A DNA stretch of 64,000 nucleotides from IMG/VR virus record IMGVR_UViG_3300010430_000007, positions 1 to 64,000 of that record, one strand, 5' to 3'. The DNA comes from a virus. This document shows, one piece after another, positions 5,372-53,836 of the stretch. The notes under the pieces are model-generated. The model had not been told where the DNA came from. It was given only the letters and a program-made list of their open reading frames with translations, and did no database searches. Numbering within the stretch: the stretch's first letter is position 1; the number at the start of each line of letters is the position of its first letter. Position numbers and translations under genes: made by a program.

Positions 5372-7084
5372 TTAGTTGTCAATAGTATTTTTATAATCTT
5401 TTAACATAAATTGAATACTTTTTCTTCCTCTAAACTCATTTACATCTAATGTGACAATCATATCGATTCTATTTCCAATTGTCAACTCTTCTGTCATCTC
5501 TGAATTAAACATTATTGCATCAAATTCTTTTACACCTTGTAATACTTTTAGCTTAACATGGTTACTATCTTTTCCAATAGTTCTAGAGTCTAATATTTTC
5601 ATATCATTTATTCTAAACATTGGTCTTGCATTTCCAACTCCATGAGGTTCCAGCCATGCAAGTTCTTTCATTAAGTTAAAATCAATCACATCTTCATCAA
5701 TCACACATTCATATTTAAGCTTTGGTATCATATCTTCTTCTGTCAATACTGAATCTGTATATAGATTAATTTGCTTTCTAAATTCATCTACATTTTCTAA
5801 TTTAATAGCCATTCCACAAGCTTGTTCATGCCCACCAAAACTAGATGTTAATTCTCTAATACTATCAACTGCTTTGTGCAAATCAAACCCATCTATACTA
5901 CGACCTGAACCTTTACACATTCCATCTTCTACATCTAGAAGGATTGTCGGCTTATAGTACTTGTCACAAATCTTTGAAGTAGCAATACCTAATATTCCAG
6001 TATGCCATCCCTCACTAGCGACTATTAGAAATTTATCATCTTCATATGATGGGTCTGATTCTATAATCTCAATAGCTTCTGCGACAATTCTGCGTTCAAT
6101 TTCTTGACGTTCTTCGTTTAGCTCTTTCAACTGCTTACTGATAAATGTAGACTCATTCAAATCATCACTCATTAATAATTCTACTGCCAAATCTGCTTGA
6201 CCTATCCTTCCAGTCGCATTGAGTTGTGGAGCTAATTTAAATCCTATGTCTCCGGATGTGATTTTTTTATCTTGTAACCCAGATTCATTAACTAAACTTC
6301 TTAATCCAATCATGTTGGATTTATTCATATTCTTTAGTCCATGATACGCAATCGTTCTATTCTCATCATAGATTGGGGCGATATCGGCTATGCTTCCGAG
6401 TGAAACTATTTCTAAGAAATCAATGAAGTCATCGTGATCTGGCAAGTCTGGAATTAATGCACAGGCTAGTTTAAATGCAACTCCGACTCCTGCAAGCATG
6501 CCAAATGGATATCCACAATCTTCTTGTTGAGGGTCGATTACAGCAACTGCATCAGGAATCAAACTGGAAGGTAGATGATGGTCTGTCAGAATGACATCTA
6601 TTCCAAGTGACTTTGCATACTCAACTTCTTCAACTCCACTTATTCCACAATCGACAGTAATAATCAATGTTGAGCCAGATTCTTTGATTTTGTCGATAGC
6701 TTTGTTGTTAAGTCCATACCCTTCTTCTAATCTGTTTGGTAAGTAGAAATTTACTGGGTGTTTTAATTTATTAAATGTTTTTAATAGTATAGTAGTGCTG
6801 GTCTCGCCATCGACTCAGACATCGTAGTCGCCATACACGACTACACTTTCTCCTTTCTGAATTGCTTTTTTAATTCTAGCGACTGCACGTTTCATACCTT
6901 TCATTAAATAAGGATTATATAACTTACTTATGTCAGGTCTGAGATATTGTCGAGCATCTTCTTTATTATAAATCTTTCTATTTACTAACGATGTCGCCAT
7001 AGGGAAAGAATGAGTAGTTTCATTCGCCAGTTGAACAATTTTCATCAAGTCATAATCTTTTTGTATCCATGTTTTTTTATTCAT
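5372..7084 (-). CDS. recJ: RecJ single-strand DNA exonuclease, interrupted by in-frame TGA
   Basis: RecJ degrades single-stranded DNA 5' to 3' and works with SSB and annealing proteins in recombination. The ATG at 7084 follows AAAGGAGAG. The frame reads to VVVYGDYDV (residues 81-89), meets TGA at 6815-6817, then continues as VDGETST through an intact enzyme: LIITVDCG, ILTDHHLP (the DHH motif), GWHTGILGIA, GSGRSIDGF and FGGHEQACG. Apart from the TGA the frame is uninterrupted for about 570 codons, and no new start with a ribosome site lies after it. The local sequence is GAT GTC TGA GTC GAT GGC. Joining the first GTC to the GAT after the second one restores the canonical DYDVDG motif exactly. 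A perfect 7-bp stem-loop (6824-6844) ends three bases before the first GTC. Either the ribosome hops six nucleotides, or the gene carries a 6-bp insertion and is dead. Confidence 0.85.
6824..6844 (-). promoter_or_regulatory. Stem-loop just 5' of the recJ stop codon
   Basis: GTAGTCG - TGTATGG - CGACTAC, a perfect 7-bp stem in the mRNA, ending one codon before GTC TGA GTC. A position like this is used by the 5' stem-loop of T4 gene 60 bypassing; the role here is inferred. Confidence 0.5.
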
Positions 7085-7160
7085 TATACTCTCCTTTATT
7101 TTTTCTAGCATAATCCCCAAAATATTTCGCTTCGGCATTCAATCTTGCAGATATTGCGTC

Positions 7161-7580
7161 TTATATTAATTCGTACCTACCTAGATTAATTTTCTTCTTG
7201 TTTACAGTGATATATGATTCCCATTTTTCTCTGTCATTTGCCCATGAAACGCCAGTTGTTCCACTAGTATTATTTTTCTTTTTTTTAAAATTCAATCCAT
7301 TTTGCCTAGGTGTACATATTCTTAAATTTTTATAAGTGTTTATTAAAGTATTTCCGTCGATGTGGTCAACATAAGCCCATCTGTCAGTCACTCCCATTAT
7401 AAATCTGTGAAAATAAAGCTTGTTTCCATCCACACTTGCATATACATAGCCATCAGCATAACACCATTTATGCTTTGAAATTTTTTCCAAGCATTTTACA
7501 TCGCACACGCAATGAATAGGATTCGAATTACTCTCTATTTCTATAAAAAGTTTATCTCCTCGTATACATGTTTTATTCAT
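7161..7580 (-). CDS. HNH homing endonuclease cut short by in-frame TAA
   Basis: A free-standing HNH/AP2-type endonuclease that would nick or cut DNA to spread itself. The frame shows the HNH core (YFHRFIMG, then AYVDHIDGNTLINTYKNLRIC) and the C-terminal region GTTGVSWANDREKWESYI. It starts at ATG behind AGGGAG, overlapping the end of the ERCC4 nuclease gene by 8 bp. After INLGRYELI comes TAA (7161-7163), and the same frame continues to 7077 as DAISARLNAEAKYFGDYARK, which is the ending expected for the family (compare the HNH at 42862-43416). So about 27 C-terminal residues are lost unless the stop is read through. It sits 77 bp upstream of recJ. Confidence 0.8.
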   Translation of the reverse strand: MNKTCIRGDKLFIEIESNSNPIHCVCDVKCLEKISKHKWCYADGYVYASVDGNKLYFHRFIMGVTDRWAYVDHIDGNTLINTYKNLRICTPRQNGLNFKKKKNNTSGTTGVSWANDREKWESYITVNKKKINLGRYELI

Positions 7581-8122: not shown

Positions 8123-11100
8123 CTATTCTATTTTAGTGTAATTTAACGCCCACCATTCGGTTTCTGGCAAATCAATCCAACCGTCATCAGTTTTCTTTCT
8201 TTTATGTTCTTTTGAAAACTTATTGATATAAATCATATCCCCATTTTTGAATGGTGCATCTTGAAAATAAGTAATTTCTTTTTTTGCATAAAACTTAGAT
8301 TTAGGTTTGTTTTTTATCTTTAAATCTACTGTACCACCATTATTCAAACAATACCCTACAAATCTAGGGGAATACTTTGTATCTAGCCTTGTAACTAATG
8401 TATATCTTTTGTCCATGGATGGGTCTGTAAAATTAATATAACCCAGATGCTTACTTTGCACATCTATCTTGTCCTTTATTGACAGGTCAACGTCTTCTAG
8501 TGTGTTTTCAATCTCTTCTATAACTGACACAAAATCCACACCACTGTATTGCTTTTCTGTTTCTTTTGCTGAGTGTTTGGCAACTAACTCTTCTGGGAAA
8601 ATCATCGAATCTTTTTTCATTGTTTTTTTAGAATATTGTTTTTTAAAATAAAACATATCCGCTATGTCTAGTAGCTTTTTAGCCATTCCAAAGTCGCTAA
8701 AAAAATCAAGTTTAATTAATATTTTTACTTGCGATTGGTTAACTGATGTTTTTGCAGTTATATCATGCAATAGTCTTGTAAGTGATTCGTACGTGTTGTC
8801 TCTTAGCTCAAATAGTTCTTCCCCATTTTTTACACCAATATCTTTTATAGAAGCCATACCTTTGTAGATTGTATTTTCTTCTAAATCAAAAGTATACCTG
8901 GATGTAGATTTGCCAAACTTAATACTTTGAATCTTAATGTCAGTATGCTCTTTTATAAAGTCGGTTATATTCTGTGTTTTTTCAAATTTTCCATCGTTTA
9001 CATTTAACTGATTACAAAGATATTGAAGTGGATAGTAACATCTATAGTAAGCATTTTTAAAACCAAGCAAAGTGTATGGTGTCGAATGGTTAATTGAGAA
9101 TCCGTAATCGCTGGAATCGATTATTATTTGTACAAATTTGTCAATCGCAAGTATCGATTCTTCCTCAGTTGCTCCGTAATCTTCGATGAAATGTTTCATA
9201 AATTTCTCTCTTATTTCAGGAACAAATGCATCTGTTCCACCTTTTTTCGCAATCCCTCTTCTAACACTATCGCTCTGAGAGCCTGTATAATGACAGAACT
9301 TCTCCAAAAATAGCATTATCTGCTCTTGGAAGATGCAGTAGTTATTCATATTTGAGAAGAACTCATTTATGGCACTGTGCCCATTGTCGTTCGGTATGCC
9401 TTGTAGAAAATCTTCTCTAAAACTTGAACAAGATGGTCTTATTACTCCGTTTAATGCAAGCATGATAAAAAATCTATTTACACTTGGGTTGTTTTTTACA
9501 AAGTCCTCGAAATTTTCCAATGCTCTTCTTAATGAAAACCATCCGCTTTTTTCAAACTGAAATATACCAAGCCCGGACTTTAACATCTCGTTCCACACAT
9601 TGATGTCGTCTAAATCCAAATCATCATTATGGAGTGCAACACCAGTATCTTTTTCAGTATCACCAACTATTTGTATGTTGTCTACTGAAAGTAAATCCAT
9701 TTTTACAAAATTTACAGAGTCAATAGCCTTCATATCATTTTGAGAAATCACCCATTTAGAATCTTTATTTCTAAAAGTTCCTATTTCTTCATTTATTTCA
9801 CCATCATATGTCACAAACCCACATGCATGAGTTGAAGTGCCTGTAATAATACCAACTGCCTTATATGTTAGCTCTATCCATTCCGGATATTTTTCTCTCC
9901 ACTTCTCTTCGTTATGAAATGTAGAAATGACTGTAGTTGTTTCGTCTTCATTTTCTATTTTCTTTTCTTCTATCTCTTTTGCTACTAGGTTTTCTGTTTC
10001 TAGGTCATATCCAAGACCTTTTGCCACAAGCCTACAAGCACCTCTGAGTGCTAATTTAGAAAAGGTTACAATTGCCGAACATTGTAAGCCTTCACGATTG
10101 TATAGATAATCTTTTACCAACGGTCTTTTTGCACCTGCCATGTCAATATCCACATCGGCGAGTGATATTCTCTCAGGATTCATAAATCTAAAGAATAATG
10201 TTCCATATTTTATAGGGTCAACGTCTGTTATATCTAACACCCATAAACTTTGTGAGCCATTACATGAACCTCTTGGTGAGGTTGCTATGTTGTTATCTCT
10301 ACAAAATTTAACCATGTCATCGAGCAATACAAAATAATCACAATTGCCCAGCTTTACATAGGTATCATATTCAAATTTTATTGCGTCTAGATATTTTTTT
10401 CGCTTCTCTGGTTCAAAATCATTTATCCTTTTATCTTCTATGCCTTTTAATATTCTATTCCACAATTCTTTTTCTGGGTCATTTGAAATCTTTGGGTATT
10501 TATGAGAAAAATCTAGTTCCCAATTGTCGCACATATCAGATAATACACAAGTGTTATTGATTGCCTCAAAAATCTCACCATCAGACAGTATACCTTGTTG
10601 TTGAAATTCTTCGAAAAGTTCATCGTATGTTCGCATGTGTAATTCAAAATCTTCTTCTCCTGCTTCACCAGTATCTTTTTTTCCTGCTTGTAAAACAGCT
10701 CTCAATCTGTTATCTTCTTTATTTAAAACATGTGTATCTGTTCCTGCGATAATTCTGATACCAGTTTTTTTAGAAAAAGAAATTAATAGTTCGTTATATG
10801 TTTTTTGGTCTTCTGAACGTACATGTGGTTGCACTTCAAGAAAACATCTGTCTTTGTTTTCTACGAGCCATTCTGTGTACTTGTCGCACTCATGTTTCCC
10901 ATGTAACTTCCATAATGGTGATGCCAAACATGCAGTAGATACTAATATATTTTTTGAAGTAGCACACAACTGTTCAAAAGAAATCCTAGGTCTGTAGTAA
11001 TATTGTATTCCGGGATACCATTTCTCGCCCTTACCAATAAAAGATTTAGAAGATAGTTTATTTAATTCTCTCACGCCCTCGATGTTTTTTGCATATAAAG

Positions 11101-11365
11101 ATATATGAAAGTTTTGCCTCTCTTGTTTTTCTAAGTCAAACGACATATAAAATTCACAACCATGTATATATTTTATTCCTAATTTATCTGCTACTTGTTT
11201 CTTTTTAATCCACTGAAAAACATTTCCATGCTCTGTAAAAGCGATTGAATCTAAATTCATCTCCTTGGCTTTTTTTAAATAGTCTTCGAAATTAACAGTC
11301 GAATCAAAATACGTGTCGTTTGATAATGTTGTGTGTACGTGAATTGGAACTTGTCTTTTTGTCAT
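8123..11365 (-). CDS. dnaE: DNA polymerase III alpha subunit (family C, DnaE type)
   Basis: The replicative DNA polymerase, 1080 residues. An N-terminal PHP domain has its metal ligands (HVHTTLS near residue 10; FTEHGNV near 45). The palm contains RGSCNGSQSLWVLDITDVDP and then NPERISLADVDIDMAG, with the paired catalytic aspartates, and the third aspartate in VKMDLLSVDNIQIV. The C-terminal part (about 900-1080) should hold the tau/OB region. It is a little shorter than bacterial DnaE (about 1100-1160) and lacks the 3'-5' exonuclease domain of PolC. ATG behind AAGGAGGGG, touching the primase stop codon, so the two are translationally coupled. Confidence 0.95.
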   Translation of the reverse strand: MTKRQVPIHVHTTLSNDTYFDSTVNFEDYLKKAKEMNLDSIAFTEHGNVFQWIKKKQVADKLGIKYIHGCEFYMSFDLEKQERQNFHISLYAKNIEGVRELNKLSSKSFIGKGEKWYPGIQYYYRPRISFEQLCATSKNILVSTACLASPLWKLHGKHECDKYTEWLVENKDRCFLEVQPHVRSEDQKTYNELLISFSKKTGIRIIAGTDTHVLNKEDNRLRAVLQAGKKDTGEAGEEDFELHMRTYDELFEEFQQQGILSDGEIFEAINNTCVLSDMCDNWELDFSHKYPKISNDPEKELWNRILKGIEDKRINDFEPEKRKKYLDAIKFEYDTYVKLGNCDYFVLLDDMVKFCRDNNIATSPRGSCNGSQSLWVLDITDVDPIKYGTLFFRFMNPERISLADVDIDMAGAKRPLVKDYLYNREGLQCSAIVTFSKLALRGACRLVAKGLGYDLETENLVAKEIEEKKIENEDETTTVISTFHNEEKWREKYPEWIELTYKAVGIITGTSTHACGFVTYDGEINEEIGTFRNKDSKWVISQNDMKAIDSVNFVKMDLLSVDNIQIVGDTEKDTGVALHNDDLDLDDINVWNEMLKSGLGIFQFEKSGWFSLRRALENFEDFVKNNPSVNRFFIMLALNGVIRPSCSSFREDFLQGIPNDNGHSAINEFFSNMNNYCIFQEQIMLFLEKFCHYTGSQSDSVRRGIAKKGGTDAFVPEIREKFMKHFIEDYGATEEESILAIDKFVQIIIDSSDYGFSINHSTPYTLLGFKNAYYRCYYPLQYLCNQLNVNDGKFEKTQNITDFIKEHTDIKIQSIKFGKSTSRYTFDLEENTIYKGMASIKDIGVKNGEELFELRDNTYESLTRLLHDITAKTSVNQSQVKILIKLDFFSDFGMAKKLLDIADMFYFKKQYSKKTMKKDSMIFPEELVAKHSAKETEKQYSGVDFVSVIEEIENTLEDVDLSIKDKIDVQSKHLGYINFTDPSMDKRYTLVTRLDTKYSPRFVGYCLNNGGTVDLKIKNKPKSKFYAKKEITYFQDAPFKNGDMIYINKFSKEHKRKKTDDGWIDLPETEWWALNYTKIE

Positions 11366-34295: not shown

Positions 34296-35477
34296 TTATG
34301 CTTTGAAATTATAAATTGGCTTAATAATCTCAATAATTTCTACTGTGTCCCGAACATTGTCAATTATCTCTTGCATAGGCTTGTAAGCCATTGGAGATTC
34401 ATCTATTGTAGATTCATTGACTGAAGTCGAATAAACATCCTTCATTGATTTCTCAAATTCTTCTAGATTGACTAGCTCTTTTGCTTGACCTCTGCTCATA
34501 ATTCTACCTGCTCCATGCGGTGCTGACATATTCCAATCAACATTTCCTTTCCCTAAAGCAATAATACATCCATCTCTCATATTCATGGGAATAATAACCT
34601 TTTCTCCTAGTTTAGCTGAAATAGCACCTTTTCTTAACACCATCTCACCTGTATTAATATAATTATGGATTGTCTCGAATTGGTCTACAATATTCAAATC
34701 GAATTTTCGAATAATTCTCTCAGCCATCTTCTTTCTATTTAAACTTGCGTACTCTTGAACAATTTTCATATCATGAATATAATCTTTAAAGTTATCTCCT
34801 TCAACATATGATAACGCCTTCTTAACTTTTGGAACGTCTCGTTTGATAACACTGATTGCATATTCAATTTCTTTACTTCTATTCTTAGACTTTAAAAATT
34901 CAATTGTTTCTTTAATCTTTTCTTTTTGGTAATTCGAACTCTGGAATGCTTTCTCTTGATAATGGTCGGCAACTTGCTTTCCTAAATATCTACTTCCACT
35001 ATGGATGACCAAATATTTATCTCCATTCTCAGCGATATCGATTTCTATAAAGTGATTCCCTCCACCTAGACTACCAATTGATTTCTTTGCTCTACTTAGA
35101 TTAATACTTTTAAAACATCTTAAGTTATATAGTTTTTCAAATTCGTCTTCTCTTGTGTTAACATCTTGCCCATAGGGAATATTTTTTCTAATATAATTAT
35201 CTAAATCTTCTAAGTTTAAATCCACTTGTCCTAGATTCACAACGTACATCCCACAACCAATATCAACTCCCACTAAATTTGGAACAACTTTATCTTCAAT
35301 ATTCATAGTAGTGCCAATAACACATCCTGCTCCAGCATGGAAGTCTGGCATGATTTTAATATTCAAGTCTTTAGTCCACTCTTCATTTAACAACTCAATT
35401 ATTTGAGAGCTCGCCTTGTCGTTATAACTATTTGAAAAAACAGTAGCCTCTCCATATTTCCCTCTTAATTCATACAT
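34296..35477 (-). CDS. rtcB: RNA-splicing ligase, RtcB family
   Basis: RtcB joins RNA ends carrying 2',3'-cyclic phosphate or 3'-phosphate to 5'-OH, using GTP and Mn2+. Seen motifs: KIMPDFHAGAGCVIGTT (residues about 41-57), VGVDIGCGMYV (about 69-79, metal Cys/Asp), GSLGGGNHFIEI (about 132-143, metal His), VIHSGSRYLGKQVA and the guanylylated-His region SAPHGAGRIMSR (about 319-330). At 393 residues it is of the short type. In a phage it plausibly repairs tRNAs or mRNAs cut by host anticodon nucleases (inference). Own promoter at 35501. Confidence 0.93.
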   Translation of the reverse strand: MYELRGKYGEATVFSNSYNDKASSQIIELLNEEWTKDLNIKIMPDFHAGAGCVIGTTMNIEDKVVPNLVGVDIGCGMYVVNLGQVDLNLEDLDNYIRKNIPYGQDVNTREDEFEKLYNLRCFKSINLSRAKKSIGSLGGGNHFIEIDIAENGDKYLVIHSGSRYLGKQVADHYQEKAFQSSNYQKEKIKETIEFLKSKNRSKEIEYAISVIKRDVPKVKKALSYVEGDNFKDYIHDMKIVQEYASLNRKKMAERIIRKFDLNIVDQFETIHNYINTGEMVLRKGAISAKLGEKVIIPMNMRDGCIIALGKGNVDWNMSAPHGAGRIMSRGQAKELVNLEEFEKSMKDVYSTSVNESTIDESPMAYKPMQEIIDNVRDTVEIIEIIKPIYNFKA

Positions 35478-35577: not shown

Positions 35578-36132
35578 CTAAAACATATTTCTGGCAATTC
35601 CATCTCCAGCTTCAAACATCTCTTTGAATTTGTCGCTATTTCTAAATTGTTCTTGATTTATATTGTCTAGCGTTGCCAACTCTTCCTTTGATTTTTCAAT
35701 GCCTAATTCTTCACATAAAATTGCATATACTTCCATATTCGGAGCATATCCATGTTGTTTAAACAACTTTTTAGAATCGCATTTGTTAAAGTATTCTTCT
35801 AATGCAAACGCAACGGCTGAAGACCTACTGATTCCAGCATGACAGTGAACAATTAATCCACATTCGAAGTCTGTGATTAAGTCTACAAAAGTTTTAATTT
35901 TATATGCTATTTCTTTAGTGAAAAATTTTAAATTTCGTTTGTTTATATAATCTTCTGGAATATTGTCTGTAGTTTCAATATCACTAAATACTAGCCTCTT
36001 TGTAGCTATTGACGTTTGAAACAATGGCTTTATTTCATCGAAATCAGTTATTGATACACATGCCCATTCTTTTTCGTGGCTGTATGAAAAGAAGTCTTCT
36101 GCATTATCCTTACTCATTATTCTTATATCCAT
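35578..36132 (-). CDS. Dual-specificity/tyrosine phosphatase-like protein, 184 aa
   Basis: The CX5R phosphatase loop is complete: LIVHCHAGISRSSAVA (residues about 94-109), with a candidate general acid in the FSDIETTDNIPED segment (about 49-61). It would act on phosphoprotein or nucleotide/RNA 5'-phosphate substrates; the last is attractive beside RtcB but unproven. The C-terminal 50 residues are charged. ATG behind ATAGGAGA. Confidence 0.82.
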   Translation of the reverse strand: MDIRIMSKDNAEDFFSYSHEKEWACVSITDFDEIKPLFQTSIATKRLVFSDIETTDNIPEDYINKRNLKFFTKEIAYKIKTFVDLITDFECGLIVHCHAGISRSSAVAFALEEYFNKCDSKKLFKQHGYAPNMEVYAILCEELGIEKSKEELATLDNINQEQFRNSDKFKEMFEAGDGIARNMF

Positions 36133-51983: not shown

Positions 51984-52718
51984 TTACTTGTTTAACTCCA
52001 TAATTACCTTTGCACCGTGCTTTTCTATAAAAGTGAATGTATATCCATTTATCGGACTTTTTCTTTTTCCGCTTAAATACATGCTTATATCAGGTGCTCT
52101 TATATTTAAGGCTTTTCCAGCTTTACATTGCGAATCAAATATCTCACCGGTTTCATTGCATAGAATTCTTTGTTTTCTCGTACTTATAAATTTGAAGTTC
52201 GGGTCATCGAATTTTGTTCTAATCCAATCCTCTTTTACCTCATCATAATATCTAACCTTTACACCATTCGAGTCGCATGCTTTACCTCTACAAGAGTACG
52301 CTATACTTCTATGGTCTATTCCCATCTTTACAGCCAATGCCTTTCCCGTTGGGTATATCTTAATTACTTTGTCATCTTCTACAATACAACATTGTTTACT
52401 CTTAGGGTATAATCCATTATTTCTTACGTGCGTCATGTTTTCTAGAGGGGTACACCATTCAAGATTGTCCACCCTATTATTTGACTTGTTTGCATCCTTA
52501 TGATTCACCTGTGGTTTATTTTCTGGATTCGGTATGAACACAGTGGCTATTATTCTATGCCTTCCATGTATGACACCATATCCCATACCTAAGTCTATCG
52601 ATGTTTTTACATATCCATCTTTATCTGGTTTATTTGACAAAGGTTTTCCTTTCTTGCCAATTACAGTGCCATAATTAGATATTTTATACCCATTGATTTC
52701 CTTCCATATTTCTTTGAT
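51984..52718 (-). CDS. HNH/NUMOD homing endonuclease with apparent AUC start
   Basis: Free-standing intron-type endonuclease: an N-terminal NUMOD4 motif ([17 protein letters not shown], residues 3-19), an HNH core ([20 protein letters not shown], then [18 protein letters not shown]) and C-terminal NUMOD1-like repeats ([25 protein letters not shown]). An in-frame TAA bounds the frame at 52719-52721, and no AUG, GUG or UUG lies before the NUMOD4 motif. ATC at 52718 is eight bases after TAGGAGG. TTG at 52640 would delete NUMOD4. Confidence 0.82.
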
Positions 52719-53377: not shown

Positions 53378-53836
53378 CTAAATAGTCTCTCCATCCCAAT
53401 TTTTAATAATCACATTGAATCCACATTTTTGCAACTGATGAGTTGATTCTCTATACGTTTTTACATTTGCCCCGTAGAAGGTATGGGTACTGAGGTACGT
53501 CCCCCAGCTATCATCATCTTCTTTTGATTTAATCCATCCATTACAAACTCTTCCGCCGATTTTGTCTTCTTCGTCAAATCTTAGGTAATGTGTATCAGAC
53601 TCAATTCCACAATTAACCAATTCATCCCAATTATTAATTAATGTCGCATCTGGATATAATTCAAATAATGGAGTATCTCTCAGTCTAATCTCTTCTTCTG
53701 TCAGTTCTATTGGCTTCTCTTGTGGAGCTCCAAACTCAATGTAGTCACTAAATTGCTCATATTTTTTACTTGAGCTTCTGTTGTTACTTTTATTCATTCT
53801 ACTGAAGCTCTGATTGTTCCTTCTGTGTTTAGCCAT
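53378..53836 (-). CDS. Hypothetical protein, 152 aa
   Basis: Basic, Asn/Arg/Ser-rich, probably disordered head (MAKHRRNNQSFSRMNKSNN), then a globular part with several Trp and Tyr. ATG behind AAAGGAGA. Unknown function. Confidence 0.6.
   Translation of the reverse strand: MAKHRRNNQSFSRMNKSNNRSSSKKYEQFSDYIEFGAPQEKPIELTEEEIRLRDTPLFELYPDATLINNWDELVNCGIESDTHYLRFDEEDKIGGRVCNGWIKSKEDDDSWGTYLSTHTFYGANVKTYRESTHQLQKCGFNVIIKNWDGETI

What the first reader, a model, noticed from the sequence alone, without database searches (positions are those of the whole stretch)
6803..6850. recJ interrupted by GTC TGA GTC at its catalytic motif: candidate 6-nt translational bypass
Seen: the frame encodes DYDV, then TGA, then VDGETST, and continues through a complete RecJ. 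Skipping TGA GTC (or GTC TGA) restores the family motif DYDVDG exactly. The codon before the stop and the codon after it are both GTC, and a perfect 7-bp stem-loop (6824-6844) ends one codon before the first GTC. Known: T4 gene 60 bypassing uses matched take-off and landing codons, a stop directly after take-off, a 5' stem-loop, and lies beside a homing endonuclease gene. Here an HNH gene lies immediately upstream. Inference: a minimal hop keeps RecJ active, and the interruption might protect the site from a homing endonuclease. The competing explanation is a simple 6-bp insertion that kills or splits RecJ, or an assembly error.
Basis: partly seen in the sequence, partly recalled or inferred. 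Interest (0 to 1): 0.88.

Follow-up and report, generated by a model that had tools for sequence, protein, structure and literature searches.

The report
Phage recJ cut by GTC-TGA-GTC
A bacteriophage gene for the DNA-repair nuclease RecJ carries an extra six bases with a stop signal in the middle of its active site; this could be a first natural case of ribosomes hopping over a stop between two matching codons, but it is more likely a recently broken gene beside a broken mobile endonuclease gene.

Summary
On the minus strand recJ runs from ATG 7084 to GTC 6820-6818, then TGA 6817-6815, GTC 6814-6812, and 479 more codons. The two halves abut at the same column (65) of the RecJ model TIGR00644, so both GTC codons encode one residue and the excess is exactly 6 nt. 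All 85 comparison RecJ loci lack it. Degenerate scans of 2.9 million viral contigs and 85,000 genomes found no second case.

TGA is a normal stop in this genome. No suppressor tRNA or SECIS-like match was found.

New here: the stop sits in the centre of the most codon-atypical, GC-rich 16-codon patch in the window (z -5.5; 63 relatives -2.6 to +2.0). The upstream HNH gene is itself truncated by an in-frame TAA. The 7-bp stem is largely a by-product of the protein motif. Matched flanking codons arise by chance in 2-10% of stop-making insertions.

Most likely this is a private, recent insertion at a homing-endonuclease-conditioned site that truncates RecJ (0.5). A natural in-frame stop-hop fits every base and is not excluded (about 0.18). 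A review (PMC5009743) states that none is known in nature. Assembly error is about 0.2. Reads and a reporter would decide.

The parts
6818..7084 (-). recJ N-terminal fragment, 89 codons (MNKK...GDYDV), ATG preceded by AGGAGAG
   Evidence: TIGR00644 profile 5-65
6818..6820 (-). first GTC (putative take-off codon)
6815..6817 (-). in-frame TGA inside catalytic motif I (DxDxDG)
6812..6814 (-). second GTC (putative landing codon); same family column as the first
5372..6814 (-). recJ C-terminal fragment: DHH, DHHA1 and RecJ OB domains, 480 codons, no further lesion; first possible start codon 49 codons in, past motif I
   Evidence: Pfam; TIGR00644 profile 65-545, 498.9 bits against cut-off 396.9
6824..6844 (-). 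perfect 7-bp stem-loop GTAGTCG-TGTATGG-CGACTAC
   Evidence: present in 7-11% of synonymous recodings
6786..6847 (-). predicted mRNA hairpin with GUCUGA as the apical hexaloop (-22.7 kcal/mol)
   Evidence: z -2.3 against shuffles; 0.2-5.5% of synonymous variants fold as well
6797..6844 (-). rare-codon, GC-rich patch centred on the TGA; lowest synonymous-usage score in the window
7161..7580 (-). HNH endonuclease gene (PHROG 99 type), truncated by an in-frame TAA at 7161-7163
7080..7160 (-). remaining 27 codons of the HNH C-terminal domain after the stop, overlapping the recJ start
   Evidence: read-through raises PHROG 99 from 103.2 to 130.6 bits
7573..8112 (-). ERCC4-type nuclease gene, upstream in the same run of genes
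8123..11365 (-). DNA polymerase III alpha-type gene (dnaE), intact; used to seek related phages

Best explanation
A phage recJ carries a private, recent 6-bp in-frame insertion (TGA+GTC, or equivalently GTC+TGA) inside the DxDxDG metal-binding motif. Most ribosomes stop at the TGA and give an 89-residue dead fragment, so RecJ is largely or wholly inactive in this genome. The site was probably conditioned by a free-standing HNH homing endonuclease that moved in just upstream. About 48 bp of recJ around the interruption have foreign-looking, GC-rich, rare-codon sequence, as expected if the target region was converted from a donor or changed to escape cutting. The HNH gene has since lost its own C-terminus to a nonsense codon. 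Shown: the insertion, the patch, the truncated HNH gene and the absence of the insert in relatives. Inferred: the homing link, the recency, and that termination dominates. Low-level +6 hopping would be expected from the matched codons, but programmed, useful hopping is not shown.
For: Exact 6-nt excess in motif I, absent from all 85 comparison loci. No similar interruption in viral contigs with TGA, TAA or TAG and any flanking codons (the four hits are chance), nor in genome contigs for GDYDV-TGA-VDG. TGA is a true stop here, ending 13 of 145 non-overlapping ORFs, and the only tRNA is tRNA-Ile(TAT). The first start codon after the TGA lies 49 codons on, past motif I. The adjacent HNH gene is also stopped in frame. 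Codon patch: z -5.49, lowest of 11,079 windows; random synonymous genomes reach this anywhere in 2 of 60 runs, so it is unusual window-wide and very unusual at one named place; 63 relatives at the same place -2.6 to +2.0. None of the RecJ loci carries this HNH type nearby.
Against: The C-terminal 480 codons are pristine with all conserved residues, so if the gene is dead, it died very recently. Matched codons exactly flanking the stop have a 2-10% chance under mutation. The atypical patch and hairpin centred on the stop would also suit a recoding signal. A homing origin of the patch is inferred; no donor sequence was found.
Confidence: 0.5

Rival explanations
1. Productive in-frame stop-hop: with UGA in the A site, peptidyl-tRNA-Val leaves the first GUC, the mRNA moves 6 nt, and it re-pairs on the second GUC, giving uninterrupted RecJ. 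The insert would be a tolerated, perhaps endonuclease-protecting, bypass element, a minimal analogue of T4 gene 60.
For: Exact stop-hop geometry; hop product equals the family motif; both halves intact; only +6 gives re-pairing on GUC; rare-codon patch and hairpin with GUCUGA in the loop; HNH gene beside it, as with the defective mobA beside T4 gene 60 (PMC3014915). Synthetic stop-hops occur in E. coli (PMC5009743).
Against: No natural in-frame stop-hop is known (PMC5009743). No recurrence. Hairpin and stem only modestly beyond synonymous nulls. No KKYK-type signal; the basic stretch upstream is judged ordinary for RecJ. The neighbouring gene is also stopped.
Confidence: 0.18
2. Assembly or consensus artefact: the hexamer, and perhaps the patch, does not exist in the phage population.
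For: Single IMG/VR contig; singleton; the neighbouring HNH gene also has a stop; repeated words around the site (AGTCG-ATGGCGA twice) could confuse assembly.
Against: A 6-nt in-frame insert is not a typical short-read error. The long replication genes dnaE and ERCC4 align full-length with relatives. A 48-nt converted patch in perfect RecJ register is hard to make by misassembly.
Confidence: 0.2
3. UGA readthrough or redefinition (suppressor tRNA, alternative code or selenocysteine) gives RecJ with two extra residues in motif I.
For: The frame is open after the TGA. Another long frame, 110148-112799, has two TGA and no TAA or TAG.
Against: The product would have DYDV-X-V-DG, a two-residue insertion not seen in any relative. 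TGA ends other genes; no suppressor tRNA; no Rfam hit including SECIS.
Confidence: 0.06
4. A split RecJ: two separately translated polypeptides that reassociate.
For: Both fragments are intact.
Against: No start codon for 49 codons after the stop, and no Shine-Dalgarno-like sequence seen before that first TTG; the second product would lack the DxDxDG motif and the strand after it.
Confidence: 0.03

Closest known systems
Synthetic in-frame stop-hops (Weiss et al. 1987, as reviewed in PMC5009743)
   Same: Matched codons directly flank a stop; 9 nt would encode one amino acid; the reading frame is kept.
   Different: Those are laboratory constructs in E. coli. Here it is in a natural gene, translation is untested, and the pair is GTC with TGA.
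T4 gene 60 programmed bypassing (50 nt; PMC11194080, PMC3014915)
   Different: 6 nt instead of 50, in frame instead of out of frame, no recognised nascent-peptide signal or 3' stem-loop; bypassing proven only for T4.
Magnusiomyces capitatus mitochondrial byp elements (as reviewed in PMC5009743)
   Same: Short inserts in conserved genes whose removal at translation restores the protein.
   Different: 81 inserts in mitochondria, apparently independent of context; here a single insert in a phage.
Intronless homing by free-standing phage HNH endonucleases (own knowledge)
   Same: HNH gene between two replication genes, with an altered sequence patch in the neighbouring conserved gene.
   Different: The target site is not known, no uninvaded sister phage was found, and the HNH gene here is truncated.

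Membership tests
RecJ exonuclease (TIGR00644) | Score above the equivalog cut-off | tested here: met
   Read-through 563.8 bits, C fragment alone 498.9, cut-off 396.9
RecJ exonuclease (TIGR00644) | Uninterrupted DxDxDG motif I in the standard reading | tested here: not met
   TGA GTC inserted; all 85 comparison loci lack it
In-frame stop-hop | Identical codons directly before and after a stop | tested here: met
   GTC TGA GTC at 6820-6812
In-frame stop-hop | The hop product, not the readthrough product, matches the protein family | tested here: met
   Both halves abut at profile column 65
In-frame stop-hop | Full-length product made by ribosomes | not testable with these tools
   Needs a reporter or mass spectrometry
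T4 gene 60-type programmed bypassing | 5' and take-off stem-loops | tested here: inconclusive
   7-bp stem in 7-11% of synonymous variants; whole hairpin p 0.002-0.055 by null model
T4 gene 60-type programmed bypassing | Nascent-peptide signal (KKYK) 25-30 residues upstream of the P site | tested here: not met
   Residues 59-64 before V89 are YLMKGM, followed by K65 R66; no KKYK
T4 gene 60-type programmed bypassing | Homing endonuclease gene just upstream | tested here: met
   HNH gene 7161-7580, truncated
T4 gene 60-type programmed bypassing | Insert absent from homologues | tested here: met
UGA recoding (code 4, 25 or Sec) | UGA not used as a stop, or suppressor tRNA or SECIS present | tested here: not met
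   TGA ends several genes; only tRNA-Ile found; no SECIS hit
Intronless homing cassette | Intact HNH endonuclease that cuts the allele lacking the cassette | tested here: not met
   The HNH gene has an in-frame TAA and lacks its last 27 codons; cutting not testable

The most novel reading that the evidence does not exclude
GTC TGA GTC in this recJ is a natural in-frame stop-hop: ribosomes skip TGA+GTC and make active RecJ. It would be the shortest bypass element in nature, placed by or against an HNH homing endonuclease, with a surrounding rare-codon, hairpin-forming patch as its stimulator.
Probability: 0.18. Interest if true: 0.92.

Novelty: new variant of a known kind. Interest (0 to 1): 0.5.

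Why it matters
The 2016 review of recoding (PMC5009743) says in-frame stop-hopping is known only from synthetic constructs and that no natural occurrence is known. This locus is a minimal candidate: one stop, two matched codons, and a catalytic motif that works only if the hop is exact. One reporter assay could settle it. If the hop is absent, it still shows how a homing endonuclease neighbourhood leaves a recoded patch and a lesion in a conserved replication gene, and warns that matched codons plus a stem-loop are weak evidence for bypassing.

Tried and rejected
Alternative genetic code: TGA is rare but terminates several genes; rejected. Suppressor tRNA or tmRNA: only tRNA-Ile(TAT). Selenocysteine or intron at the site: no Rfam match. 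Split gene with restart: no start codon for 49 codons. Recurrence: strict and relaxed interrupted-motif scans gave nothing in RecJ. Donor of the GC-rich patch: no exact joined-flank match in viral contigs and no useful DNA match in phages. Templated origin of the hexamer: only one exact TGAGTCGATGG in the genome; repeated AGTCG-ATGGCGA words nearby are suggestive only. A family-wide rare-codon effect at motif I was tested in 63 relatives and rejected. The dnaE rare-codon patch upstream of the intron site seen in L088 is within the range of random minima, so not used as evidence.

Full report
What is there. The window is part of a 133,911-bp virus record with phage replication genes on the minus strand: dnaB-like helicase, a putative primase, dnaE, an ERCC4 nuclease, an HNH gene and recJ. 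recJ starts at ATG 7084 and reads ...VVVYGDYDV, TGA, VDGETSTT... to a stop at 5372. The NCBIfam RecJ equivalog matches the N fragment at profile positions 5-65 and the C fragment at 65-545. Both GTC codons therefore encode the same family residue, and the excess is exactly six nucleotides, placeable as TGAGTC or GTCTGA and two other equivalent ways. The solved RecJ 8y30 aligns along almost the whole read-through, with a two-residue gap at this point.

Relatives. 85 comparison RecJ loci (80 from viral contigs, 5 from phage records) have the DxDxDG motif without the insert. Scans for any TGA or TAA/TAG codon followed by any codon inside the motif gave four hits, none in a RecJ frame. The strict pattern gave none in viral contigs or bacterial genomes. 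The tools may hide near-identical records, so a close relative sharing the insert cannot be excluded.

Code and decoding. In the whole record TGA is the rarest stop but ends ordinary genes (13 of 145 non-overlapping ORFs of 100 codons or more). The only tRNA is tRNA-Ile(TAT). No Rfam element lies at the site. The first start codon after the TGA is 49 codons on, past the catalytic motif, so a restarted product would lack motif I.

The patch. The 16-codon window over the interruption has the lowest synonymous-usage score of 11,079 windows in the 64 kb (z -5.49). Random synonymous genomes reach such a minimum anywhere in 2 of 60 runs, so the coincidence with the named site is the stronger statement. 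In 63 relatives the same place scores -2.6 to +2.0. The 55-nt stretch 6792-6846 has 55% GC against 31.5% overall, one of two such peaks in the window. Within it a residue seen in none of the compared loci (Glu after DG) is encoded. The patch is not explained by a simple 6-bp insertion. Conversion from a donor, escape from an endonuclease, or selection for mRNA structure are possible.

Structure. The mRNA is predicted to fold into a hairpin with GUCUGA in the apical loop (-22.7 kcal/mol, z -2.3). Against synonymous recodings with phage codon usage 0.2% fold as well. With the codons permuted it is 3%, and with uniform codons 5.5%. Structure beyond base composition is thus only hinted at.

The neighbour. 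The HNH gene is stopped by TAA at 7163-7161; reading on adds 27 codons that raise its PHROG 99 score from 103.2 to 130.6 bits. It is probably defective, as T4 mobA is described to be (PMC3014915). Two adjacent genes with in-frame stops favour decay over function. The only other broken frame found is a large unassigned ORF at 110148-112799 with two TGA.

Mechanism. A real insertion that truncates RecJ, at a site marked by past homing, needs the fewest assumptions (0.5). A stop-hop explains the exact codon match (2% by chance for a random insertion, 10% for a mutated duplication), the restored motif and the pristine C-terminal half. It has precedent only in synthetic constructs, and the review says no natural case is known (PMC5009743). 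T4 bypassing depends on a KKYK nascent-peptide signal and defined stem-loops (PMC11194080); no KKYK is present here. I give it 0.18. Artefact 0.2, readthrough 0.06, split gene 0.03.

Verdict. The bypass interpretation is possible but not supported over an ordinary lesion. It is cheap to test and would be a first if true.

Noticed in passing
L093:12604-12930 (record position about 114,604-114,930): The tail tape-measure gene is interrupted by about 0.3 kb that matches the group I intron model (RF00028, E 3e-6, 31.4 bits, below the gathering score of 50), with no ORF seen inside.
   Followed up: partly
record 110148-112799 (L093:8148-10799, +): An 884-codon frame just after the tRNA-Ile(TAT) gene has two in-frame TGA and no TAA or TAG; it looks like a degenerate homing-type endonuclease, but no Pfam or PHROG family was assigned.
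   Followed up: partly
window 7161-7163: The HNH gene beside recJ carries an in-frame TAA with 27 family-matching codons after it.
   Followed up: yes
L088:3018-7387: In a related phage contig dnaE is split by a homing endonuclease ORF at the motif corresponding to RRG (residue 702) of the window's dnaE, and its helicase gene appears to hold an intein.
   Followed up: no
window 53378-53836, around codon 107: Second-lowest rare-codon patch of the window (z -5.1), about 0.9 kb from another HNH gene at 51984-52640.
   Followed up: no
window 34296-35477 and 35578-36132: An RtcB-like RNA ligase ORF and a phosphatase-like ORF (C-H-AGISRS motif) in the same phage, named from sequence resemblance only.
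   Followed up: no
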